A DNA stretch of 64,000 bases from Malachius bipustulatus (taxonomy: Eukaryota; Arthropoda; Insecta; Coleoptera; Melyridae). The stretch lies in NCBI GenBank assembly GCA_910589415.1, contig OU342639.1, positions 15,632,268 to 15,696,267 on the forward strand, given 5' to 3'. This document shows positions 22,980 to 62,325 of the stretch, piece by piece. A program made the translations under genes and the position numbers. Numbering within the stretch: the first letter of the stretch is position 1; each line of letters starts with the position of its first letter. The notes below the pieces were generated by a model. The model had not been told where the DNA came from. It worked only from the letters and a program-made list of their open reading frames with translations, and made no database searches.

Positions 22980-23751
22980 TCAAGACATAATTGTATACAA
23001 GCAAGCAAGTGTATCGATATAGTCTTTGAGATGCGTCGAGGGCCATCTCCCTGAATCGGGTCCATACACCCATCCCAATTTATTTTCTTCTCCGGAGCAA
23101 CCTTTTACAATATTTCGTTTCAACCAGGACAGCAAATTTGCATGTGACGGGGTGTTGGGATCGAACACATATTTTATATCATATTCAGCAGCGGCTTTAA
23201 TTACGTTTTTGAGTAGGCGGCTATCGGCATACTGGATAGCTTCACAAATTAATTGATCAATAAAGTGATGCCCGTGCTTATATCTGGTGAAAATATTCTT
23301 CAACTCGTATTCTTCTTCCCAGTCATATGATTTCTTATTGGTTAATAAAGTGAAAAAGAAGTGCTTTTCATACAATGATAGTCTTAAACCGTTACGAAGT
23401 AACAAACCGTATGCCAGTTTACAACTTAGGTTTTCAAATTCACTATCACTTAAAATACTAACAATCTGATTATATTTCTTATCAAACTTAATTATATTTT
23501 CTAAGACGGAATTTATAATAGTTAAATTCGATTCTCCTCTATTTACAATCCACTTAAAAGCTTCATCTGGTACAACAATCTTTGATAAAAGTAAATGAAT
23601 AAAAAATTACTATCACTAATATTACCTATACAAAATTTCATCTTTCAACTGATTTTTATACAAATCATAAGTAGAAGTAATGTAATCAAACAACACTGAT
23701 AAATCTAACCCGCACATGGTAGCAAACTGAAGAGCATGAAGTTGAAACATT
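22980..23751 (-). CDS. Polinton 1 orphan ORF in two pieces, about 240 aa
   Basis: The first piece starts at ATG 23751 (MFQLHALQFATMCGLDL) and runs to about 23,630. The second runs from about 23,583 (IVVPDEAFKWIVNRGES) through ELKNIFTRYKHGHHFIDQL to the stop at 22980. Between them lie ~45 bp starting GTAATATT and ending TTTATCAAAG, which looks like a short intron, but the simplest splice does not keep the frame, so a frameshift is equally possible. The repeated helical segments recall ankyrin-like proteins; no clear repeat could be proven. Confidence 0.45.
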
Positions 23752-23884: not shown

Positions 23885-26800
23885 TTAGATATATCTTTGT
23901 GGCCCCAAGCTGAACTTTGGAACTTTGGAACCCTGAATCAAAAAACGCTTGTCATCGAAATGCGATAGTGCCACTTTGCGTTGATAATTTGTAAAAATTG
24001 TATGATTTATAGATCGAAAGGTATGCATTGTGCAATATACGCTGGTACCTCGCTCTAACACATCTCTATAATGTGCCATCGTCAACTGTTGCTTAACGGA
24101 ACTCTTCTTAATTCCCTTAGCCTTTTTTACCTCATCATCGCCCGCCTTCACGTAATAGGCTTTGGAACCTGTACCGTAAAATGTATCTATTGCACGTCCG
24201 GAAAACTCATCCTTCATGCGACCAATGACTGACTTGTTTCGAGGTATATTGTGAACATTATCAACAGAATAATTTGACGTGTCAAATTTGTCGATATTTT
24301 CTTTCATGTCATCATAAAAATTTGGTGTTTTTACGGAAATGATTAAACTATCCGTATCAGTATACAGCAGAGATACATTTTTACCGTACAAGTTCTTAAG
24401 GTATCCGTAAAAGAAGTCGTAGATGAGGGTTTTAGATATATCTAATATGGAAAACCCGACATATATGGGCTTATTATAGTGCACATAAAGCTTTTTTAGC
24501 TCGACGGCTACCAAATTATCTTGAAATATTTTCAAAGATTTGAAACTCGGTCTCGAAACATAATTTTCCACCCCCAGCTTATGACCGGTGGCGGCATATT
24601 GGGTAACCAACTTGATGTTAACCCGATTTTCCACATTTTCCATCGTTTTGCCATAGATGCTGTTAATCATAAGTTTGAACATATCCCTTTCAAAAGAATT
24701 TTTAGCCGAATTCCTGAGAGTTGTGTTTAGGTCGATATACGGCTTCAGCCAGGCTGATTGACGAAATTTAATGGCTCTATGAATCTGCTTCAATTTCAAT
24801 CCGTGGGATAAGCATTGTTTCAAATTTGAATAATGTATGATATACTTATTTTTATTTTGTAAATTTTGAATAAGTTTGGAATGCTTCCCCCCGGGAGGTA
24901 TCATGTTTTCCGGACAGAAAGGGAAATCATTGTGTTCATCGTGAAGCGATTCAGGATATTCGAGATCGACTTCGAAAACATAACCGATGGATGAATCTGC
25001 AGAGAGCACGTCTAAGTCTATTTCATCAATCTCCTGTCTGGTCAACCATGCGAAGTCCTCCCTTGGTAGGACTCGTTGCATGCTGGCACCGTACATATTC
25101 GACATGTCTAAGTACATGATATAATCGGTCTCATTAGCTGGATTATAATTTTGACTGAAGGGATTGTTAGCTTCGGCCTTTCTCTTCACACAGGTGCTGC
25201 ATCCACCGCGAATACCCTTCTTAAAAAAATGCAGCATGTCGATATCCGTGAGGAGTTCTAGCTTCACTTTTGTAAACCTCAACATGGCATCCCAACTCAA
25301 ACCAGGAGCCGTGTAGTAATGGGCGGGATCTAAATGATATGTGGACAAGCAAAGATCTCGATAATTTTCGAAAACATCTGCAAGGAGGAGAACGTCTGAT
25401 TTAAGATATAAATCACAATAATCGCCCAGAGTTTGACAGTGAAAAGCATCCCAGACTGATCGAGCGCGTTGAAAGTCCTCATCACTAACGCACTCCTGGT
25501 TCAGTTCATCATAAAATCGACCACGACATGGTAGTCTAGTCTCTTGCAGCTTGGAAATATCGTCAAGATATGAATATGGCATGACACCCTTTTGACGAAC
25601 ATATGAGAATTCAGTATCGTCAGGAAACGCTTTTCTTACTTCTCGACACTGATTAGAATCTAAATTGCCTGCAAGAGTTTCTAACGACGATGATAAAAAT
25701 TGAAAACTGTCGAGGAACCGCAGCTGCAGGTGCACATCACGTGACTGGCCTCGAGAATCACTAACAGTGTCGACGTGAAGGAATTTAGTGAATGAAACAT
25801 ATTTTTCAAAGTTGCAAGGGATAATATCGATTCGCTCACCATTGGGTGCTAAATGTTTAATCAAGATGTGAGCATCATAGTTTTTTAGGTTGTGGAACAG
25901 TATCGGAACAAATTTCGGAACTTTGTAGTTGATGTTGCAGGTGGCATGTGACGGTCCGCGATATAGGCCAGTGAGGTGGCAATGATCGCGAACTTTAACA
26001 TCTGATAATGTGAAACTCTCCTCACAGATATGACACGCTGTGGCATTTCTATAAGAATCCTCTTGCTGAGGTGTTAATGTCTTCATAGGGACAACGGGTT
26101 TCAAAAATTCGTGGTAGATGCGTTGTAAATCGTTTTCTAATTTAGTCACAAACATTTGAGGTGCATCTAGGCCGGTATAAATTTCGAATTTTGACAATGA
26201 GTCATCGAAAGAACATTTTATATAGTACGCGAATGAAAAAGGGATATGTTCATACTTTTGAACTGTGTATGTGTCTGTAGTAGGGTTATCTGCTTGCTCC
26301 ACATTTTTCATCAGGCACTCAAAATCACCAAAGACGACAAAAGGCACTCTCAACCGCTTTTGATAATTTTCAAATTTTAGAAAATTAGTAGGCACTTGAC
26401 GGCCAAGTTTATCCTTCCTCTCACCTATGGTAGGAAGTATCACGGCTACATGACTGCAGTCGTACTCTTTGTGTCTAGCAAGTATCTCTGCCGAACGGAA
26501 ATATTGTAAACAGGAATCGCAAAAATACATTTTCCCATCATGTTTCGAAATTTGGTTTGAAATTAGTCGTGATAAATTCTTAATGTAACAACAATGTTGC
26601 ATTCCTTCAGAGTTATCTATTAGTAACAAATTTACATGTCGGGCTCGTTTGTGTTCCGAATAGTGCAATGGGCCTACTATTTGATACCTCTCGAAACCGT
26701 CAATATAAATTTTTTCCAGACCATAAACGTTAACTGAAATATTATTTTGCGTTTCAAATTTAGGTACGTCTTTCAACGCGACAGGAAAACTTATATCTGT

Positions 26801-27739
26801 GAAGTCGAACACTGTTGAAAAATGTGGATACGATGATACTCGATTATATCTACCTGTCGGTTCGCAAATAGCTGCCACCAAGCTCCATGCGAAACAGTAC
26901 TCGTCATTATTTTGAATATTTATAACAGCTTTTTTCTTTTCTATGCTTGGAGGTAGCGGTATATACGAACTGCCTTTAAGCGGATTAAATTTATTAACAT
27001 TGACTTCTACATGTATAAATTGTTCCAAAATCCATCCTGAATCCCGCTCTAGGAATTCAGATGTTTTTTGGTCAAACACGCTAACTATATCTATATACAA
27101 ACTATCTAAGCTAGTTGAGGCACACACTACTCTACTACTAAAAATAAACGACTCTACCTCTCTAATGTCCTTACTTGGTAGATAATAAATACCAAACAAC
27201 TCTAAATTTACTTTAAAAGGTCCGTTTTTCAATAGTTCATTTTCCAACAACGCTATAATGTCTGCTCGCACATCACTCATGAATTCGTCAACACTAATAC
27301 GCTTTTCGTCACTACTTACTCTGTAGCTCGCTAACCTGCCTCCGTACGCTGTACTACTCACTTCCACACGTCCACTTTCGGCCATCCAAAAATGACTCTT
27401 ATGTTTATTGGTCCGAATATGTGCAGCGTATGCGTTGCCTGGAACTTGCACCTGGCAAGCATTGCAGTACAGCAAATTTGCTAAAATAAAATGTTCAGGT
27501 ATGAATTTGAAAATCCAGTGCACATTTGCGAAACTTACGAGCAGAGTTGGTTGCGAGTTTTTGTCTCTTTGCAGGTGCGGCCACATCGTCCGTAGTGCGA
27601 CTTGTTGAAGCTGCTAAATAATTATTATAATTCACCATTATTTTAAAATATTTATCACATTACCTGATGCTCGAGTTGCGAGCGGTCTTTTGCATCCCTG
27701 CTCGAGGTGGTTGAACAATGCCGCTTGGTTTCCATACAT
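23885..27739 (-). CDS. POLB: Polinton 1 protein-primed DNA polymerase B, with 5' introns
   Basis: The main exon encodes ~1200 residues. In order: U1-type zinc finger (CNACQVQV), a C2H2 finger (CDSCLQYF), exonuclease motif VFGDFECLM, an HNH-like RDHCHLTG cluster, polymerase motif A (LDMSNMYGASM), motif B (KLMINSIYGKT) and motif C (LLYTDTDSLI). Exons upstream: 27739-27664, intron 27663-27614 (50 bp), exon 27613-27539, intron 27538-27481 (58 bp, GTAAGT...TTTTAG), which puts the downstream frame in register. At the 3' end the 23885 stop may follow a one-base shift: the next frame reads AWGHKDI and an acidic tail to 23779, resembling the usual C-terminus. Replicates the element from a protein-primed end. 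Confidence 0.85.
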
Positions 27740-46419: not shown

Positions 46420-49400
46420 ATGACAGATAGTAATTATACTATGGAAAAAGCCATCATTTTGGCTAAAATTACTATTGGAAGGTTAGCTCCTTTGGCAGTC
46501 TTGGCTGATAAAGCTAAGGATGACAGAGATGTTTGTTCTGAATTGAGCCAGTCATTTGATGAAGCTTCATCATTATACCACGAGTTTCAGTTAGTCGTTA
46601 AGGGAACTTTATATGATGATTCATGCGAGAATTTTGAAACCGTTTGCGGGCAAATTGTCGAGATTGATGCGTTGTTCAGGAAGATCAGGATTGCTCATTC
46701 ACGGTTTGGCACAGAATTATCGTCGAAACCTTCGCCCATTATCAAAGCTAATTCGTCAGAATCATTGACTCCAACTCGATCTCTTCCGGAGTCTCAGGCA
46801 GGTTCTTCCGACGCTTTGAATAGGTCATTGAATGTCAAACTTCCTCGTATTAGTCTACCCATTTATGACGGATCGTTGGAATCTTGGTCATCTTATTACA
46901 ATTTATTTTGTGCGTTGATACATGAGAATAGTTCATTATCGAATATTGAAAAATTTCAGTATTTAATTTCGACTCTCTCAAAAGAGCCGTTGGCTTTGGT
47001 TAAACATCTACCTCTTACGTCTGACAATTATGTCATCGCTTACCAGTCCTTGGTGGATCGTTATCAAAATGACAGGGTTCTGGCCACCTTATATTGGAGA
47101 TCGGTCTTTGAGGCTTCGAAGGTCTCATCAGAGTCTAGTCATGCTCTTCGGACTTTATTGAACACGTTTGTTGAAAACATCACAGCATTAGAAAGAATCC
47201 CTAATTTAGATTTATGGGACTTCACAGTCTTCAATGTGTTTGTTCAGAAGTTGGATAGTGGGACACGCAAACGATTTGAAATGGCATTTGCTCAGACTGA
47301 ATTTCCTACCTTCGACGATTTGAAACAGTTTGTTAACGATCAATGCCGCGCTTTAGAAGCTAGTTCATTTACTAATCAGCCTAGTTCCACGCCAAAATTG
47401 GGTACTGTTGAACGTAAGCCAGTTACTAATGGGTCTAGAAACGCATCTTCGTCTTATCGTCATAGATCTCAGGCGTTATTGGCTTCTTCTGCGGATGCAT
47501 CAGCGTCAAATGCATCTTCAGTGAGATCTAACTGCTTCCATTGCAAGGGTGCATCACATAAAATTGTGAATTGCCCTTCATTTTTAGACCTTTCGCCATA
47601 CAATCGTCATTTGTTGATCAAGGCTGCAAAACATTGCAACAATTGTTTGAAACCGTCACATACGATGAAATCATGTACGTCTTCGTCTAGGTGTCAACAT
47701 TGTTCACAACCACATCATTCATTACTTCACTTTGCCGGTAGCAAGGATAATCCGTCGTCAAGCGCAACATCTAATACGTTGCCTAATGGTGTTTTATCAG
47801 ATTCACCAGTCACATTATCGTCCACAGTAAATTTGACATCTTCATCCGATACGACTTTGGTTTTGTTGTCCACGGTAGCATTGGAGATTCAAGATCGTTT
47901 TGGTAATTACAAGCAGGTTAGAGCCCTTTGTGATTCCGGTAGCCAGTCTACTTTTATAACCGCACGATGTCGCAAACACCTTGGTTTGGCTATCGATCGC
48001 TCATCGATACCTCTTGCTGGTTTAGGTCAAACAGCCATTACTTCCTCTCACGGGCGTACTAACTGTCAAATTCGTCCGATCGGTTCGCCAGAGCAGGTTT
48101 GTAAGGTTTCTGCAATTGTGCTTCCAACGATTTGTTCTAATCTTCCGGCCGTGCCTCTACCACACACAAGGTCGTTTGAAAATTTACCGTTAGCTGATCC
48201 TCATTGGAATGTCCCATCGTCGGTGGACATGCTTTTGGGAGCTGATATATTTGCTCATATTGTTCGTGGTGGTTTTATCGCTGGTGATACTGATCATCCA
48301 GCAGCCATGAATACTATCTTTGGCTGGGCATTATTTGGAAATATTTCTTGTACCAGTCCATCTCCAACGAGGTCCTTCTTCGTCATGACAAATCCTTCGC
48401 TTGATGATACCTTAAAGGCCTTTTGGAACGTTGAAGAAGTTCCCAACGTCGTTAGCAAATCTCCAGAGGATCAGAGTTGTGAATCGTCTTTTGTTAATGA
48501 TCATTATCGTAACCAATCAGGTCGGTTTTGTGTATCCTTGCCATTCAAGGAACCAAATTCGTTGCCTTCATTCCTTGATTCTGAGAAAATCGCGGACAAT
48601 CGTCTCCGTACTCTTGAACGTCGCTTATCCAAGGATTCGGCGCTTCGTGACAAATATAATGAATTTCTGTCGGAATACATCGCATCTGGGCACATGTCTC
48701 TTTTAACGTCAACCCCGTCAGATTCGAATTGCTATTTCATTCCCCATCACTGCGTCTTCAAGGGTGAGGGAATCTCTTCAAAGATTCGAGTGGTGTTTGA
48801 TGCGTCGGCTAAAGCGTCAAATAATGTTTCACTTAACGATGCATTGTTTGTCGGGCCTAAACTTCAAAATGACATTTCTGTCATTTTACTTCGTTTTCGT
48901 CTTCATGAATATGTGTTCACTTGTGATATACGACAGATGTACCGTCAAATTTTGGTGACAGAAGCCCATCAATCGTTTCAATTAATTCGGTGGCGTTCGT
49001 CGCCCGAAGACCCTATTGACACATATCGTTTGAACACTGTCACTTATGGAGTGTCCAGCTCTCCTTTTCTCGCTATTCGTTGTCTTTTGCAACTAGCGCA
49101 AGAGGGCGAACAAGATTTCCCACTTGCCGCGCATGCGATTCGTAATGCATTGTACGTTGATGACTTTGCAACCGGGGCAGACGATCTTCAGACTGCCTCA
49201 GAGTTGAAGAGGCAACTCATTGGTTTATTGAAAGGAGGTCAATTCGAACTTCGAAAATGGGCTTCGAATCATCCTGACCTTTTACTTGGACTACCTGCTG
49301 AGCATTGTCAAATTCATGCATCGTCGTTTGATTCTGATTCTGACACAATGCTTAAGATTCTTGGCTTGCTGTGGCAATCGTCTAGTGATTCTTTCTCATT

Positions 49401-51678
49401 CAGCGTTAAGCAGATTGAGTCACCATGTACAAAGCGATCTATTTTATCTGAAATTGCTCGCATATATGATCCTTTGGGATTCTTGTGTCCTATCACTTTT
49501 TTTGCGAAACGTCTCATTCAGCACTTGTGGTCTTTGGGATTAGACTGGGATTCTGAACCCCCGTCTGACGTCTGCGAACAATGGAAGCATTACAAATCGT
49601 CACTTCCTGTCATATCTGAACTGAGCATTCCTCGCCGTTTGAAGCTTGTTTCATCGACATGCCAGCTTCACGGATTTTGTGACGCGTCTGAGTCTGGCAT
49701 GGCAGCTGTTGTTTATTTTCGGTGTGTTGATCCAGAAGGGATGGTTCATGTGTCTTTTGTCATGGCCAAGTCCAAGGTCGCCCCGTTGAAGCGAATCTCT
49801 ATTCCGCGCCTTGAACTATGCGCAGCGGTTTTGCTAGCCAAATTAATTGCTCATATCATTCAGAATTGTTCTGAAAGCGTCGTCATCGAGCAAATATTTG
49901 CATGGAGTGATTCGACAGTCACTCTTTCATGGATCCGTTCGTCTCCACATAAGTGGAAAACGTTTGTGGCTAATCGAGTCACATATGTTCAAGAAAGAGT
50001 TCCTCCCGATCGTTGGCATCATGTTCGGTCGGCTGAAAATCCAGCTGATCCAGCATCACGTGGTCTTTTTCCCCGCGAACTTTTAATAAGTTCTCTATGG
50101 TGGGCGGGGCCGCATTGGCTTACGGAATCTCCGGAAAATTGGCCTTTAAATTCATCGTCGTCCACTGGTGTGGATATAAATGAAGAAGCTAGGGTTGTCG
50201 TGTTACACTCTCATGTCGTCACGTCAGATATTGAGATTTTGCTAACTCGATTTTCCTCTCTACGCAAAATACAGGGCATTGTGGCTTACTGCCTGCGTTT
50301 TCTTCACAACGCTCGTCATAAGCCCAAAATTGTTGGTCCGTTGACAGATGCAAAATTACATCAGTCTTTGTTGTTAATCGTCAAGGCGGTTCAGGCAGCT
50401 ATCTTTCAGCCAGAACTTGCCAAACTGCAAAGTGGACAGCCTTGTAGTAAATATCTGCAAAAATTGTCTCCCTTTATAGATAATGCGGGTATTCTTCGCG
50501 TCGGTGGTCGTCTGGCAAATTCGTCATTGCCATTTGGTACCAAACACCCTGCTTTACTTCCAAGTCGTCATCGTTTGACTGAACTAATAATTTTGCAAGT
50601 TCACAATCGTCATCTGCATCCAGGGATTCAAACAACTATGTATCTGATACAACAGAATTTTTGGATTCTCGCCTTTCGTCAAACAATCCGTCATTACTTG
50701 AAAACGTGCAACCGTTGCTTTCGGGTTCATCCACGTTCTCTTACACCCCCCATGGGCAATTTGCCCTCGTTTCGTGTAAGTCAGGTTAAAGCTTTTAGTT
50801 GTGTAGGTGTGGATTACGGAGGTCCTTTTCCCATTTTGATGTCACGTCATCGAGGTGCTCGTACCCAAAAGGCTTATTTGTGCTTGTTTGTTTGCGCTGC
50901 AACAAGGGCCATTCACGTCGAAGTCGCTTCAGACTTATCAAGCGAAACGTTCCTCGCTGCCCTTCGTCGATTTATCGCTAGACGAGGACGTTGCTCGTTT
51001 CTTTTCAGTGACTGTGGCACGAACTTTGTCGGTGCCCATCGTTTGCTCGTCGAATACATGAAATCCGCTGTGGAAGCAGAGTCCATCGAATGGCGCTTTA
51101 ACCCGCCTTCCTCGCCTCACTTCGGAGGGTTATTCGAAAGTGGAATTAAGTCCGTGAAAACTCATCTGGCCAGGGTCATTGGTCAACAAATCTTAACATA
51201 TGAGGAACTCAACACTCTTCTTGTTCAAGTCGAAGCGGTGTTGAATTCGCGTCCGTTGTGTGGTGTCAGCGCTGATCCTAATGACCTAACCGTTCTCACA
51301 CCCGGTCATTTTCTTACTCTTGAAACCCTAACAGCACCACCTGATCCAGATCTATCCCATTTGAAACTTTCTCGTCTGTCTCGTTGGCAATTAGTGCAAC
51401 GTTTGCACTATGATTTTTGGAAACGGTGGAAGAACGAATATCTTCATACGTTCTATCAACGTGGTAAATGGAGTAAGACCAAGACATTTGATGTTGCAGA
51501 TGTCGGGACATTGGTACTGATCAAGGATGAACTTGCCCCTCCCCTTCAGTGGAGGCTTGGCAGAATTGTTCACCTTCATTTTGGGTCAGACAAAATTGCT
51601 CGAGTCGCTACACTTCAAACGAAAACCGGGCTCCTTAAGAGACCCCTCGTTAAGTTGTGTCCTTTACCGTCACAATAA
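46420..51678 (+). CDS. gag-pol: BEL/Pao Gag-Pol polyprotein, intact
   Basis: One uninterrupted 1752-codon ORF from ATG 46420. Residues ~140-330: DUF1759-type Gag (LPIYDGSLESWSSYYNLF). ~371-430: Cys/His knuckles (CFHCKGASHKIVNC, CNNCLKPSHTMKSC, CQHC). ~503: protease CDSGSQSTF. ~790-1000: RT with YVDDFATGAD at ~911. ~1083: RNase H (HGFCDASESGM). ~1396: integrase zinc region (RHLHPG...CNRC). Catalytic core D ~1463 (GVDYGGPF), D ~1529 (SDCGTNF), E ~1567 (FGGLFESGIKSVK). C-terminal DUF5641-like domain to the stop. No separate envelope ORF follows, so an intracellular retrotransposon is expected. Gag and Pol are in one frame, as usual for BEL. Confidence 0.95.
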   Translation: MTDSNYTMEKAIILAKITIGRLAPLAVLADKAKDDRDVCSELSQSFDEASSLYHEFQLVVKGTLYDDSCENFETVCGQIVEIDALFRKIRIAHSRFGTELSSKPSPIIKANSSESLTPTRSLPESQAGSSDALNRSLNVKLPRISLPIYDGSLESWSSYYNLFCALIHENSSLSNIEKFQYLISTLSKEPLALVKHLPLTSDNYVIAYQSLVDRYQNDRVLATLYWRSVFEASKVSSESSHALRTLLNTFVENITALERIPNLDLWDFTVFNVFVQKLDSGTRKRFEMAFAQTEFPTFDDLKQFVNDQCRALEASSFTNQPSSTPKLGTVERKPVTNGSRNASSSYRHRSQALLASSADASASNASSVRSNCFHCKGASHKIVNCPSFLDLSPYNRHLLIKAAKHCNNCLKPSHTMKSCTSSSRCQHCSQPHHSLLHFAGSKDNPSSSATSNTLPNGVLSDSPVTLSSTVNLTSSSDTTLVLLSTVALEIQDRFGNYKQVRALCDSGSQSTFITARCRKHLGLAIDRSSIPLAGLGQTAITSSHGRTNCQIRPIGSPEQVCKVSAIVLPTICSNLPAVPLPHTRSFENLPLADPHWNVPSSVDMLLGADIFAHIVRGGFIAGDTDHPAAMNTIFGWALFGNISCTSPSPTRSFFVMTNPSLDDTLKAFWNVEEVPNVVSKSPEDQSCESSFVNDHYRNQSGRFCVSLPFKEPNSLPSFLDSEKIADNRLRTLERRLSKDSALRDKYNEFLSEYIASGHMSLLTSTPSDSNCYFIPHHCVFKGEGISSKIRVVFDASAKASNNVSLNDALFVGPKLQNDISVILLRFRLHEYVFTCDIRQMYRQILVTEAHQSFQLIRWRSSPEDPIDTYRLNTVTYGVSSSPFLAIRCLLQLAQEGEQDFPLAAHAIRNALYVDDFATGADDLQTASELKRQLIGLLKGGQFELRKWASNHPDLLLGLPAEHCQIHASSFDSDSDTMLKILGLLWQSSSDSFSFSVKQIESPCTKRSILSEIARIYDPLGFLCPITFFAKRLIQHLWSLGLDWDSEPPSDVCEQWKHYKSSLPVISELSIPRRLKLVSSTCQLHGFCDASESGMAAVVYFRCVDPEGMVHVSFVMAKSKVAPLKRISIPRLELCAAVLLAKLIAHIIQNCSESVVIEQIFAWSDSTVTLSWIRSSPHKWKTFVANRVTYVQERVPPDRWHHVRSAENPADPASRGLFPRELLISSLWWAGPHWLTESPENWPLNSSSSTGVDINEEARVVVLHSHVVTSDIEILLTRFSSLRKIQGIVAYCLRFLHNARHKPKIVGPLTDAKLHQSLLLIVKAVQAAIFQPELAKLQSGQPCSKYLQKLSPFIDNAGILRVGGRLANSSLPFGTKHPALLPSRHRLTELIILQVHNRHLHPGIQTTMYLIQQNFWILAFRQTIRHYLKTCNRCFRVHPRSLTPPMGNLPSFRVSQVKAFSCVGVDYGGPFPILMSRHRGARTQKAYLCLFVCAATRAIHVEVASDLSSETFLAALRRFIARRGRCSFLFSDCGTNFVGAHRLLVEYMKSAVEAESIEWRFNPPSSPHFGGLFESGIKSVKTHLARVIGQQILTYEELNTLLVQVEAVLNSRPLCGVSADPNDLTVLTPGHFLTLETLTAPPDPDLSHLKLSRLSRWQLVQRLHYDFWKRWKNEYLHTFYQRGKWSKTKTFDVADVGTLVLIKDELAPPLQWRLGRIVHLHFGSDKIARVATLQTKTGLLKRPLVKLCPLPSQ

Positions 51679-55774: not shown

Positions 55775-56994
55775 TTAAAGAATTTTCTGAAACACTCCGC
55801 CGAGAGAACGATGTTCATACACGCAGTCGTTGATGATGACACAGTAGACCTTCGTATTGGCTGGGAAATTGGCACTGCTTTCAAAGACCAGTTTAATGTC
55901 TACGGTAGCTGCCTGCGTCGCCGGGGAATGCTTTGAGCAGTCAAACACAAATAGAGGTCGGTCTTTGAAGTCGACATAGTCGAGCATCGGTGAGGACGAT
56001 GGCTTACCACAAAATGACCTCTGGAAGGTCGTGTATGCGTCGTATACTTCTCCGTAACGATTTTGTTCAAAATTAAGGCGCATAGGCTCCGCAGGGTACG
56101 TCTCGGAATTCAACTGCAGTCGTACACTGGTCAGGTCCGCGTGTACGCAAACTGCGTGATATTGTTCAGAAGGCTGTTCCATCGGTTGGTCTGCAAACCA
56201 ACGACAACGTAACGAGGTCGTTCAGTTACCGGTGATGTTTTCACAGCCCACAGATCCTTTGTGCTGTTACTGAGAGCTGGTAGCTCGTACAGCTCCCAAC
56301 GGCGGAAGGGTATGTAGACAGGTTTGTTAGCGTTCAAGTGACGTAACATCGAGAGGCGTGTGACATCATCGGGGACGATATGCAACATCTTGAGTTTGAC
56401 ATTGCTTACGGTGATGGTCGCTGTTTTCGTACCGACCGTTCCGTCGGCTTGCAAACTGACATATGCGTTGTTATCGCTAACGGCTCGTGTGAAACGGAAG
56501 ATGTGTTTACCGCTTAATACTTTGCTATAGTCGTAAAAAACACTAAACAGATGTGAAAGGGGGACGCGGAAGCAAAACTTCCTGTCTCCTCCTAACAGTG
56601 ATTCAAATGTATTGCTCCAGGAGGCATGCTTCAATGCACTAACTTCATCACGGTTGTAGAGGAGCAGTGTACGCATCGCTGTAAGGATTCCGGGGTCACG
56701 AACCTTCTCCACCTCCTTCCCATTGATTTCATAAGTGATGTCTGAGAACAAAAACAAGGCAGCATTCTGTGTCAAGCTGCACGTGCCGGTCCCTTCAGCG
56801 CCGGGTACAAATTGACCTTCAATCACCAGAGTCGATTCGGACGGTAAAAGGCATATGTCTTGTTGGTTGATGATGATCTCGCAAGTATCATTATAGCTAA
56901 ATGAGCGTGTCTGCGGTTGGTAGGTGTGCACCTTGGCCTTGACGATCGATTCATCGTAGTTTGGGCTGGTATAGATATCGAGGACTCCGGACAT
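55775..56994 (-). pseudogene. MCP: Polinton 2 major capsid protein (double jelly-roll), frameshifted
   Basis: ATG 56994 (MSGVLDIYTSPNYDESI). The pattern PSESTLVIEGQF, FLFSDITYEINGKEVEKV, FRVPLSHLF and VYIPFRRWELYELP is that of insect double-jelly-roll-like proteins found in Polintons. Near 56,170 the frame shifts by one base; the next frame continues with LNSETYPAEPMRLNFEQNR, PLFVFDCSKH and ends at 55775. Together they equal ~410 residues, a usual length. It would form the hexon-like capsomer if intact. Confidence 0.75.
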
Positions 56995-57104
56995 TATAAC
57001 CAAGCGATCGTAGGAATGCGACGTTGTTAGCAGCTAAAGCACGATGATGTGATCGAGCGGAGCGTCGCACATGAACTGACGTCTGTGGGTGTACCAATCG
57101 CGTA

Positions 57105-58347: not shown

Positions 58348-59063
58348 TGACGCCGCAGGTACAATCCTGAACCCTTTTTGCCCAACGCAATGTCCTCCAT
58401 ATGACGGTTATGGCGCTTCGTCTCGTCCAGCTGTCGGGTCTTGGCCTGACGTCGGTAACGGTTTTAGCGATACCAGCAGCTCCGCTGGCTAAAGCACCGA
58501 GTGCACTCAGCCCAGCAAATATTGGTATCAGAGGGAGTACAGCCCCCGGTCTTAGGCATCGGTATTATGCGTGGTTTGTTAAACTTCTGTCTTCGAACTA
58601 TGCGTCGTGCCGTCTTGAGAGACGATGATGCAACTGCCGAGATGTCCGTGTCATCGCTGGGTGGTCTTTCACGTTTAATCTGACGAACCAGAGCTGCGAA
58701 GGACTTAGACGAACGGCAACGGCACCCCGCGCCAAGTTTCCGTTTGACCTTCATGGCGCCGGTAACCATAAGCGCTGCGGCCTTCTCACCAATTCCAGAG
58801 TCTGATGCCGTCACACGCTCCCAAGCACCGTCTTCCAAGATTTTGTCCGCCTGATGTCTAGATGCTAGATCCTTGCGAAGGGCGTAGGCAATGTCGTGAG
58901 ATCGACACAGGGTGTCAAGTTTGTTCCTGGGTATATCACCTCTACGCAAACGCTCTTCGAGTCTCGTGCCAGGACCGCAAAACTTGTAACTCGGGATATG
59001 CAGTTCAAACGGGAGATTATTGATGGCGTTATTAATGAGACCTCTACCCACGACGTCCAACAT
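58340..59063 (-). pseudogene. Polinton 2 PLA2-like virion protein, frameshifted
   Basis: ATG 59063. Residues ~15-75 hold the parvovirus-VP1-like phospholipase A2 fold: calcium loop KFCGPGTRL and catalytic HD pair in CRSHDIAYAL. A basic segment follows. At about 58,540 the frame shifts; the next frame reads LIPIFAGLSALGALASGAAG, a hydrophobic segment typical of this family, and continues toward 58,340. The family is thought to breach endosomal membranes in related virus-like elements; here this is inference. Confidence 0.7.
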
Positions 59064-59124
59064 AAAGACTGATTACCGATCAGCTGCGCTGTTCGGCGCT
59101 GCGATGTCGTGCAACAGTCGTTAC

Positions 59125-60342: not shown

Positions 60343-61240
60343 TTAGTCTGCGTGGTAACCGTATGGTAGGGTGTCGAAGGCGTTAACTCTTTTTCGCTTT
60401 GTATAGCATAGGCGGTAAACCTTTTGTTCCGACCGGGTTACGACTTCGCAGGTATGTACCCGACTTATAGCCTTGGAATTATAAACATGCTTTTCATCAG
60501 CGCCCTCGCAAACCATCTCCTTGAGGGTATTAAAATTAACAATTTTGGCATTGTCAAAGTTCAAGGTGATACCTTTAACCTTGCACACGTACACAAAATC
60601 GTTATTCTTAGATGAGAATACTTTTAACGCGTAATTTTTCGGACCACCACTAACAAATTCAGATATGTAGCTACCATCGCCGTAACCTGATATCTCATCT
60701 GTTAGCTGCCCCAAAAAATCACCCGTCTCAGGCATCCAGTCCCCGGGGGCGCCCTTGAAAATCACGCTGTCTGTGTCAAAATATAGGACCCTGTCGCTCA
60801 GTTTATGAAGATATTTGTATAACTCCAAGCGCGCTAAGCAGGTAGTCACTGCAGCTATAACAACGTTCACCGTTCTTAACGGAGTATAGCTGTCGTCCAA
60901 CTTATCCCAAGAGGCTAGCAAGACATCATCATCGATAATTACAAGATTATGGACATTTATTGACGGCTCCGATAGTAACTGAAAGAGCTCTGCAGAATCC
61001 CTTATCACAGATGTCTGCATGAGGTTTTCTCTTTGCCCGAATTTTCCCCAAAAAGAATTGAGCTGTAGTTTGGCTATGTACCGCATCCCGGGATTGACCC
61101 GTATGTTGTTCTCATCTAAAACAATTAAAACGGAGCATTTAATAAGCCCTACGAGCGTGTCAAGATTCTCCGCTTTACATGCCTCATTACCTATAATTAC
61201 CGTGGGATGGCCTACGGGGTACGTACCGTATTTGGTATGT
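60343..61240 (-). pseudogene. POLB: Polinton 2 DNA polymerase B, C-terminal part
   Basis: Open from TKYGTYPVGHPTVII (about 61,230) with frame breaks, then clean from ATG 61086. Motif B-like LNSFWGKFGQRENL, motif C YFDTDSVIF, and GPKNYALKVF with VCKVKGITLN belong to the second Polinton/organellar-viral polymerase group. Between GLIKCSVL and NNIRVNPGMRYIAK about 100-150 residues typical of the family are missing. The N-terminal part lies beyond a ~280-bp foreign segment. Confidence 0.8.
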
Positions 61241-61255
61241 GATTATAATTAAATT

Positions 61256-61535
61256 TATAATTATTTTGACAACTTTTTTTTATAGTTATAGCTGTTATAG
61301 CGAGAATAATACTATATAAAAGACACGCACGTTCTCTGGTTGCCTACTCACTCATTTGAAATTAAAAGCCACTACAAAACGAAAACACCAGTTAGAATAG
61401 ATAGAACTTCCAAATTTCGTGTAGCATATGTGGTTTAGAGCTGACTGATATGATATGCTGATGAGTCCATAATAAGGACGAAACGGTACCGTCCATGTCT
61501 TCAGTCTTCTCCTCGCATGCTGTACGAAAGTTTTT
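61256..61535 (+). mobile_element. Foreign segment interrupting polymerase B; carries a hammerhead ribozyme
   Basis: Polymerase coding sense stops at ~61,536 (LYRTN) and resumes at ~61,240. The intervening bases are non-coding on both strands. The plus strand has TATATAAAAG at 61314-61323 and an initiator-like TCACTC ~30 bp later, then a hammerhead motif at 61443-61506. It could be a small ribozyme-bearing retroelement (retrozyme or Penelope pseudo-LTR). Exact borders and a target duplication could not be set. Confidence 0.55.
61443..61506 (+). ncRNA. Hammerhead ribozyme, type I
   Basis: All conserved core elements are present: CUGAUGA (61458-61464), stem II GUCC/GGAC with loop AUAAUAA (61465-61479), GAAA (61480-61483), a minimal stem III CGG-UA-CCG (61484-61491) and the cleavage triplet GUC (61491-61493). 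Stem I pairs GAUAUG (61452-61457) with CAUGUC (61494-61499), one G-U, followed by an asymmetric internal loop and six more pairs GACUGA/UCAGUC. The very short, palindromic stem III is the form described in Penelope-like elements and retrozymes, where dimers cleave. Predicted cut after C61493. Confidence 0.85.
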
Positions 61536-62135
61536 CTAATTTGTTCTGTAAAGAATCTTTAGTGGCAAATTTAAATTAGAACCTAAATCCCAATAAAATT
61601 CATCAAATATATTATAATTAAATGTATCCTGCAGCTCTACCCTCATGTCTTCGTTGTCTTCCAACAGCTTCTGAAAACCGCATTCCCAGATAGTTTCAAC
61701 ATTATATCCGAGCGCCAGAAGCTTATTTTCTTTCCATACGGTTTTTTCACGGCGTATTAAGGCCAAGTTGTTAATATCGGAGCGGTCATTATCTTCAAAT
61801 TTTGACGACGTTTGTTTGGGATGACACCGTTCACATCCATGGTAGTAACAACCATAAAATTCGTAAACGGTGTTTGTTTCGGCGCAAAACCCATCCACAA
61901 GCAGGTTTGATGGTAGCCTGACTTCACGACCATTCCCGGCATGTTTAATCGGGTGAGGTGATGAAGCTTCTTTTAGATGTAGCCCTTTCAAGGCTACAAG
62001 AGACTGACCGTCGAGCATTCTGTAACCGTTCGGCGGCAGAAGACCGATACTATCGTTTTTCAGAAAGTTTCTTCTGAATACGAGGTTACAGGCTCCGGCT
62101 ATGGTAACGCTTTCTTGGAACGGATCAACACACAG
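61536..62135 (-). pseudogene. POLB: Polinton 2 DNA polymerase B, middle part
   Basis: Reads VDPFQESVTIAGACNLVFRR, LLPPNGYRM, VDGFCAETNTVYEFYGCYYH, CERCHP and LIRREKTVWKENKLLALGY. This is the restriction-like, HGC-containing region that precedes polymerase motif A in this group. The 5' part, including exonuclease motifs, is lost at ~62,135, where a Penelope fragment begins. Confidence 0.75.
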
Positions 62136-62325
62136 AAGTGACATAACAAAACTAAAAAAATCATGTGCTCTAGCACATCACTGCAAAAATACTGGCCACA
62201 GTATGGATTTTAATAACACAAAAATCCTAGAATCGGAGGACAGACTGAACAAACGCTCTTTTCTAGAAATGTTCTATATTATATTTTGGACTATACCTAC
62301 AGCAAGTCCCATGTTAGAGTGACAT
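62125..62325 (+). pseudogene. Penelope-like endonuclease fragment (C-terminal half)
   Basis: Plus strand: HRSDITKLKKSCALAHHC, then HSMDFNNTKILESEDRLNKR and SFLEMFYI. This follows the GIY-YIG core in Penelope proteins. It starts at HRSD, almost exactly where the fragment at 32,404-32,576 stops (AQHR). The 5' part is missing. Confidence 0.65.

What the first reader, a model, noticed from the sequence alone, without database searches (positions are those of the whole stretch)
61443..61506. Complete hammerhead ribozyme inside a broken Polinton polymerase gene
Every conserved core base (CUGAUGA, GAAA, GUC) is present, stem II is perfect, stem I has twelve pairs with an internal loop, and stem III is a 3-bp palindrome. 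Such type I motifs with tiny stem III are established in Penelope-like elements and retrozymes. Here the motif lies on the plus strand about 120 bases after a TATA box, in a ~280-bp non-coding segment that splits the polymerase. The likely reading is a small ribozyme-bearing retroelement or Penelope pseudo-LTR.
Basis: partly seen in the sequence, partly recalled or inferred. Interest (0 to 1): 0.88.

Follow-up and report, generated by a model that had tools for sequence, protein, structure and literature searches.

The report
Self-cutting RNA retroelement with Penelope-style insertion
A tiny non-coding jumping element that carries a complete self-cutting RNA (hammerhead ribozyme) landed inside a dead virus-like transposon gene, and the end structure of its many copies suggests that it is moved by the enzymes of Penelope-like retroelements, which had only been proposed for such elements.

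Summary
It is the only one found in the window; its exact 36-nt core occurs 477 times in the same 544-Mb genome (reversed-pattern control 0). It belongs to a non-coding repeat with a unit of about 571 bp, found in head-to-tail arrays and in head-to-head two-armed insertions. The window copy is such an insertion: 13-bp flanking repeat, 15-nt inverted stub, 325-bp right arm, set between pieces of a decayed Polinton-like polymerase gene.

Of 50 loci read, 32 are two-armed. In 27 of the 32, one arm ends at unit position A (u385-407) and the other at B (u428-440); 25 of the 27 have flanking direct repeats of 9 bp or more. Head-to-head arms with a short tail on one of them and target duplications are the published signature of Penelope-like elements (PLEs). 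The same genome holds many GIY-YIG ORFs that look like intact PLEs with the same arrangement, and a second, 320-bp hammerhead family.

Best reading: a retrozyme-type non-autonomous element moved in trans by PLE machinery. The near-obligate A+B pairing is the new part. Self-cleavage, circular RNA and dependence on a PLE are inferred, not shown.

The parts
61242..61254 (.). left copy of the flanking 13-bp direct repeat (target-site duplication)
   Evidence: exact 13-mer, also at 61611-61623; 0 of 2000 mononucleotide shuffles of the two 100-base flanks share a 13-mer; part of it may be microhomology with the element's end
61253..61267 (-). short left arm: 15 nt, inverted, of unit end B (u417-431)
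   Evidence: exact 15-nt match, 0 of 200 shuffled tails reach it; overlaps the repeat by 2 nt
61268..61291 (.). junction of the two arms, partly filler sequence
   Evidence: by exclusion from the arm coordinates
61292..61616 (+). right arm of the element, unit positions u69-u394, ending at end A
   Evidence: blastn to the reference unit L009:5201-5771, 98%
61313..61322 (+). TATA box TATATAAAAG, possible promoter
   Evidence: sequence; activity not tested; by rough reckoning such a box is not rare in sequence this AT-rich
61443..61506 (+). type I hammerhead ribozyme; predicted cleavage 61493/61494
   Evidence: 477 exact genomic copies of the 36-nt core 61458-61493
61592..61597 (+). AATAAA about 20 nt before end A
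   Evidence: sequence
61611..61623 (.). right copy of the flanking 13-bp direct repeat
   Evidence: its first 6 bases also match the end of the right arm
60343..61242 (-). target gene, C-side piece of a B-family DNA polymerase frame (299 aa, stop to stop)
   Evidence: PF03175 DNA_pol_B_2, E 5.7e-5, 22.6 bits, cut-off 25.8
61626..62177 (-). target gene, N-side piece (open frame)
   Evidence: open frame; no Pfam match, no PDB match; assignment to the polymerase is inference from position and recalled motifs
56131..57003 (-). neighbouring Polinton-type double-jelly-roll capsid gene (context of the target)
   Evidence: PF21738, E 4.5e-37

Best explanation
It is one copy of a non-autonomous, non-coding retroelement of the retrozyme type: unit about 571 bp, 32% GC, one type I hammerhead per unit. 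Proposed cycle: tandem copies are transcribed (read-through, or from the TATA box in the unit); some RNA is cut by the hammerhead into units that may be circularised; the enzyme of a Penelope-like element (RT plus GIY-YIG nuclease) takes such RNA, cuts both strands of an AT-rich site with a stagger of roughly 10-13 bp, and starts reverse transcription inside the RNA at two fixed places about 36 nt apart: one DNA end is primed at A, the other at B. The two cDNA arms run toward each other and are joined head to head, often after several turns round the unit. Shown here: ribozyme anatomy, copy number, non-coding unit, two-armed structure, A+B pairing, flanking duplications, PLE-like genes in the same genome. 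Inferred: cleavage, circles, trans-mobilisation by a PLE, one RNA serving both ends.
For: Hammerhead. Copies: 477 exact cores, 825 with up to 3 mismatches, reversed controls 0. Hammerhead is the least variable part: 7 variant events in 1280 locus-positions (0.55%) against 1.9-5.2% in five other parts of the unit, in the 20 loci not picked by an exact core. No ORF over 45 aa found in the unit. Unit period 571-574 bp in arrays. Two-armed 32 of 50 loci: A+B 27, A+A 1, B+B 1, 3 with another end. Repeats of 9 bp or more: 25 of 27 A+B loci, 0 of 5 other two-armed, 57 of 992 mismatched flank pairs. Neighbour orientation: this family on C1 tandem 12, head-to-head 15, tail-to-tail 0; GIY-YIG places tandem 47, head-to-head 23, tail-to-tail 2. 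GIY-YIG: 150 scored of 775 candidates, all over cut-off, about 47 (hand count) in stop-free frames of 820-860 aa, many at a period near 3.3 kb. Published PLE anatomy: inverted pLTR, TSD 8-10 bp, 31-bp tail on one of the inverted pLTRs (PMC3846280, passages); a PLE enzyme cuts and extends both strands, prefers AT-rich sites, and starts at two adjacent internal sites whose interval is the tail (PMC11167929, main text).
Against: No transcript, cleavage or circle was seen. Rfam score is below gathering. The monomer fold lacks stem III. The PLE-like ORFs were recognised by GIY-YIG only; their RT part was not read, and the N-terminal pieces read match no Pfam family significantly. The unit shares no clear similarity with the two PLE-like leaders read, so what a PLE enzyme would recognise is unknown. 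18 of 50 loci are one-armed, and of 25 five-prime sides searched for a stub only the window's was beyond 200 shuffles; one more reached 1 of 200. Of 83 arm starts only 1 lies within 5 nt of the cleavage site (u273), while 12 pile up at u550-558: hammerhead-cut linear RNA is not the usual template end, and the pile-up is unexplained. Classes A and B were set after seeing the data; without bridging gaps over 120 bp the count is A+B 20, same class 3, other 6 of 29 (read). The 20-bp repeat at L025 is a TA run.
Confidence: 0.83

Rival explanations
1. The unit is the pseudo-LTR of an autonomous Penelope-like element whose full-length copies were not sampled; the copies read are solo or tandem pLTRs.
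For: TATA box, head-to-head arms and tail are pLTR features (PMC3846280 passages). Many PLE-like genes are present. Only 150 of 775 GIY-YIG candidates were scored, and only 100 of 477 core places were listed.
Against: No ORF over 115 aa in 11 gaps near units. C1: nearest of 15 GIY-YIG places to 93 cores is 20.5 kb. Leaders of two PLE-like families do not resemble the unit. The hammerhead is the full canonical type, whereas PLE motifs are described as minimal variants (PMC7761336 passages).
Confidence: 0.1
2. A LINE moves it: ends A and B are two polyadenylation sites (AATAAA lies about 20 nt before each) and the inverted arms come from twin priming.
For: AATAAA starts at about u370 and u413, ends at about u396 and u434. 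TSDs and inversions also occur with LINEs (recalled).
Against: No A-tail was noticed at the ends printed. Two independent polyA sites would give A+A and B+B often; seen 27 A+B, 1, 1. The 320-bp family has two other ends without an AATAAA on the transcribed strand just before them (by eye).
Confidence: 0.05
3. A satellite spread and inverted by DNA-level duplication, with a ribozyme that no longer matters.
For: Arrays with identical 571-bp units exist (L009).
Against: Flanking duplications in 25 of 27 A+B loci, dispersed single insertions, and the ribozyme as the most conserved part.
Confidence: 0.02

Closest known systems
Metazoan non-LTR retrozymes (Cervera and de la Pena 2020, PMC7229834: outline, passages, sections 14 and 17 seen)
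   Same: Type I hammerhead, no ORF, low GC, tandem units, TSDs longer than 4 bp when present, dispersed copies in an animal-type genome.
   Different: Unit about 571 nt against about 170-400 nt; TATA box and AATAAA motifs in the unit, while a review says such elements seem to lack promoters (PMC7761336, passages); insertion anatomy resolved to two arms with ends A and B. The second family here (320 bp) fits the published size.
Penelope-like elements, Penelope/Poseidon type (PMC3846280 passages; PMC11167929 main text)
   Same: Head-to-head inverted arms, tail of about 30-40 nt on one arm, short TSDs, AT-rich targets, tandem units, hammerhead.
   Different: No RT/GIY-YIG gene in the unit; full canonical hammerhead; here the tail is on exactly one arm in 27 of 32 two-armed loci, where the 2013 paper calls it optional and the 2024 in vitro work saw no difference in start site between strands.
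Rfam RF00163 Hammerhead_1
   Same: Core, stem order, stem II and III match.
   Different: Window copy 28.1 bits, under the gathering score of 34; the 320-bp family scores 58.7.

Membership tests
Metazoan non-LTR retrozyme | type I hammerhead with complete core | tested here: met
Metazoan non-LTR retrozyme | no protein-coding gene | tested here: met
   longest ATG/GTG/TTG ORF 45 aa in two units of L009
Metazoan non-LTR retrozyme | tandem units (dimer or more) | tested here: met
   family: L009, L033 and C1 spacings of 571-574; the window copy itself is less than one unit
Metazoan non-LTR retrozyme | unit of about 170-400 nt (descriptive in the paper, which elsewhere allows RNA circles of 150 to over 1000 nt) | tested here: not met
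   571 bp; hence 'retrozyme-type', a variant, not a filed member; the 320-bp family meets it (spacing)
Metazoan non-LTR retrozyme | GC below 45% and TSD over 4 bp | tested here: met
   GC 0.317
Metazoan non-LTR retrozyme | expressed as self-cleaved linear and circular RNA | not testable with these tools
   no transcript data
Penelope-like element | ORF with RT and GIY-YIG nuclease | tested here: not met
   for the copies read
Penelope-like element (mode of insertion only) | head-to-head arms, tail on one arm, TSD | tested here: met
   27 of 32 two-armed loci A+B, 25 of 27 with repeats of 9 bp or more
Rfam Hammerhead_1 | score over gathering cut-off | tested here: not met
   28.1 against 34

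The most novel reading that the evidence does not exclude
Retrozymes are parasites of Penelope-like elements, and their insertions record a fixed architecture of the PLE complex: two polymerase sites take hold of two fixed places, A and B, of the RNA, and each insertion uses A for one DNA end and B for the other. That would make integration a concerted two-ended reaction unlike the one-ended start shown for LINEs, and the 'optional tail' of PLEs would be the obligatory mark of one of the two ends.
Probability: 0.42. Interest if true: 0.75.

Novelty: new variant of a known kind. Interest (0 to 1): 0.6.

Why it matters
The papers seen name PLEs only as likely candidates for moving animal retrozymes (PMC7229834, PMC7761336, PMC11722881). 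End structures at dozens of loci give physical evidence for that, in a genome that holds young-looking retrozymes and long PLE-like ORFs side by side. The A+B rule turns the PLE 'tail' into a testable statement about how the two ends of an insertion are primed.

Tried and rejected
Chance motif: rejected. Tail-to-tail or random arrangement: rejected. Similarity between the window's two Polinton-like polymerases, to define the damage at the target: no tblastn match. Viral contigs for a related hammerhead pattern: 0. A Pfam family recalled as PLE-specific is not in the library. Covariation inside the family: the sample is too uniform (61 of 76 hammerheads identical) and part of it was picked by an exact core; the MAFFT alignment of two families was shifted in stem III and not used, so pairing in both families was checked directly. 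Conservation against a control 36-mer: exact counts 477 and 315, but the control's count with 3 mismatches did not complete, so that comparison is incomplete. Promoter: only 3 of 83 arm starts lie at u118-121, where a TATA-driven start might fall; too few. HHR-cut RNA as template end: not supported. Printed claims of an A+B rule were sought (listings, plus passages of the papers named); none was seen, but two PLE papers asked for are not held.

Full report
THE MOTIF. At 61443-61506 (+) a complete type I hammerhead is present: all three core segments, a 12-pair stem I with a 3x1 internal loop, 4-pair stem II, and a palindromic stem III of three pairs plus the closing A-U. Rfam Hammerhead_1 matches at 28.1 bits, under its gathering score of 34, with E 0.0099 for the whole window against 4227 families. 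The full motif occurs once in the window and in none of 1500 shuffled windows. The lone monomer's minimum-energy fold keeps stems I and II but not stem III; the fold is 3.0 standard deviations better than shuffles. Hammerheads with a weak stem III often act as dimers (PMC7761336, passages).

GENOMIC COPIES. The window lies in a 544-Mb genome of 52 contigs. The insert found 50 matches in the listing, with only 40 of 1562 candidates scored. The exact 36-nt core occurs 477 times, and 825 times with up to three mismatches; reversed controls 0. In the 20 loci chosen without regard to an exact core, the hammerhead carries 7 variant events in 1280 locus-positions (0.55%) against 1.9-5.2% in five other parts of the unit. 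A control 36-mer has 315 exact copies; its count with mismatches was not obtained.

THE UNIT. In arrays the period is 571-574 bp. The reference unit used here is L009:5201-5771, GC 0.317, TATA box from u89, hammerhead core from u236, AATAAA from about u370 and u413. Two consecutive units hold no ATG/GTG/TTG ORF over 45 aa. Eleven gaps between or beside units hold no stop-free stretch over 115 aa. At least four gaps look like later insertions of small DNA transposons at TATA or TAAG with inverted ends (L014, L025, L026, L037), which is why gaps up to 1.3 kb were bridged.

TWO-ARMED INSERTIONS. 50 loci were examined: L009-L028 (best matches to the insert), L029-L057 (29 of 69 regions asked for from the first 100 core places listed), and the window. 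32 are two-armed, 18 one-armed (A 11, B 5, other 2). Of the 32: A+B 27, A+A 1 (L040), B+B 1 (L032), 3 with an end outside both classes (L037, L045, L050). Against an even chance of equal or unequal ends, 27 of 29 gives p = 8e-7. Flanking direct repeats of 9 bp or more: 25 of 27 A+B loci, 0 of 5 others, 57 of 992 mismatched flank pairs. One of the 25 (L025) is a TA run. Split by sample, A+B is 15 of 15 two-armed loci in L009-L028 and 12 of 17 in L029-L057 (counted). Without bridging, A+B 20, same class 3, other 6, among 29 two-armed clusters (counted). The class limits were set after seeing the data. The window copy counts as one-armed there, but has a 15-nt inverted stub of end B opposite its end A (0 of 200 shuffles; of 25 sides searched, one other reached 1 of 200).

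TEMPLATES. Units of one locus are more alike (median 0.9945, 73 pairs, 28 of them within L009) than units of different loci (0.971, 4092 pairs); 8 of 29 multi-unit loci have variants shared by two or more of their units and seen in no other locus, while many also have unshared ones. This fits one RNA or one source per insertion, for example several turns round a circle, but a homogeneous source array would do the same. Arm starts: 12 of 83 at u550-558, 1 of 83 within 5 nt of the cleavage site (sample selected for clusters with a core).

COMPANIONS. Rfam Hammerhead_1 over the own genome: 74 scored of 73468 candidates, all over cut-off, 0 of 14 control genomes; most of the listed rows score 58.7 bits and many lie 319-320 bp apart, a second family. 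Two of its loci (L058, L059) are head-to-head with 13-bp flanking repeats and two different outer ends (read by eye; hammerheads). GIY-YIG: 150 scored of 775, all over cut-off, about 47 (hand count) in stop-free frames of 820-860 aa, many at a period near 3.3 kb, head-to-head pairs 23 against 2 tail-to-tail. Two leaders were read: their ORF starts are 42% identical and each holds a hammerhead-like core by pattern (L060:216, L061:45), which Rfam does not report. That these are Penelope-like elements is inferred from GIY-YIG, ORF length, tandem period and inversion; the RT part was not read. PF01541 also rings in 12 of 14 bacterial and archaeal control genomes, so the family alone is not specific.

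TARGET. The insertion lies in minus-strand open frames. The C-side piece matches DNA_pol_B_2 weakly (22.6 bits, cut-off 25.8), the N-side piece matches nothing. A double-jelly-roll capsid gene and a phospholipase A2-like frame (PF08398) next to it support a decayed Polinton/adintovirus-like element. The two pieces lie in different frames, so the gene was probably damaged in more than this one way.

COMPARISON. In PLEs an inverted pLTR lies head to head with the element, a 31-bp tail is optionally present on one of the inverted pLTRs, TSDs are 8-10 bp, and the pLTR has TATA and initiator motifs (PMC3846280, passages). The anole PLE enzyme cuts and extends both strands, prefers AT-rich DNA and starts at two adjacent internal RNA sites that bound the tail; the authors saw no difference in start site between strands and found hammerhead cleavage unnecessary in vitro (PMC11167929, main text). 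Both points agree with the ends described here; the regular use of one site per arm goes beyond them. Retrozyme papers name PLEs as likely but unproven helpers (PMC7229834, section 17; PMC7761336; PMC11722881).

VERDICT. Observation confirmed, interpretation supported. A retrozyme-type element of unusual unit length with PLE-type insertion; new variant of a known kind.

Noticed in passing
G000:C1:8745450-8746350 and 10320050-10320900 (L058, L059): Second hammerhead family with a 319-320 bp period and 58.7-bit ribozymes, also head-to-head with 13-bp flanking repeats but with two different outer ends.
   Followed up: partly
G000:C11:3382-82839: A small contig made almost wholly of GIY-YIG ORFs at a 3327-bp period (21 of 24 listed places in 833-aa frames), turning from minus to plus strand once.
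   Followed up: no
L014, L025, L026, L037 gaps: Short DNA transposons with inverted ends (CAGGGTGTCCC-type and others) inserted at TATA or TAAG inside copies of the repeat.
   Followed up: partly
unit u550-558: 12 of 83 arm starts pile up here (sequence TATATACTTATG); could be the 5' end of an RNA, an RT stop or microhomology at TATA.
   Followed up: no
window 23645-23747 (+): Weak RAGATH-18 match (27.7 bits, gathering 44.9, E 0.51) beside the 1233-aa ORF 23885-27586, which looks like the polymerase of a second Polinton-like element; probably chance.
   Followed up: no
window 46420-51678 (+): Unbroken 1752-aa Pao/BEL retrotransposon polyprotein (PF05380, E 2.1e-51).
   Followed up: no
window 58464-59072 (-): Phospholipase A2-like domain (PF08398, E 1.5e-11) in the Polinton-like element that the repeat hit.
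   Followed up: no
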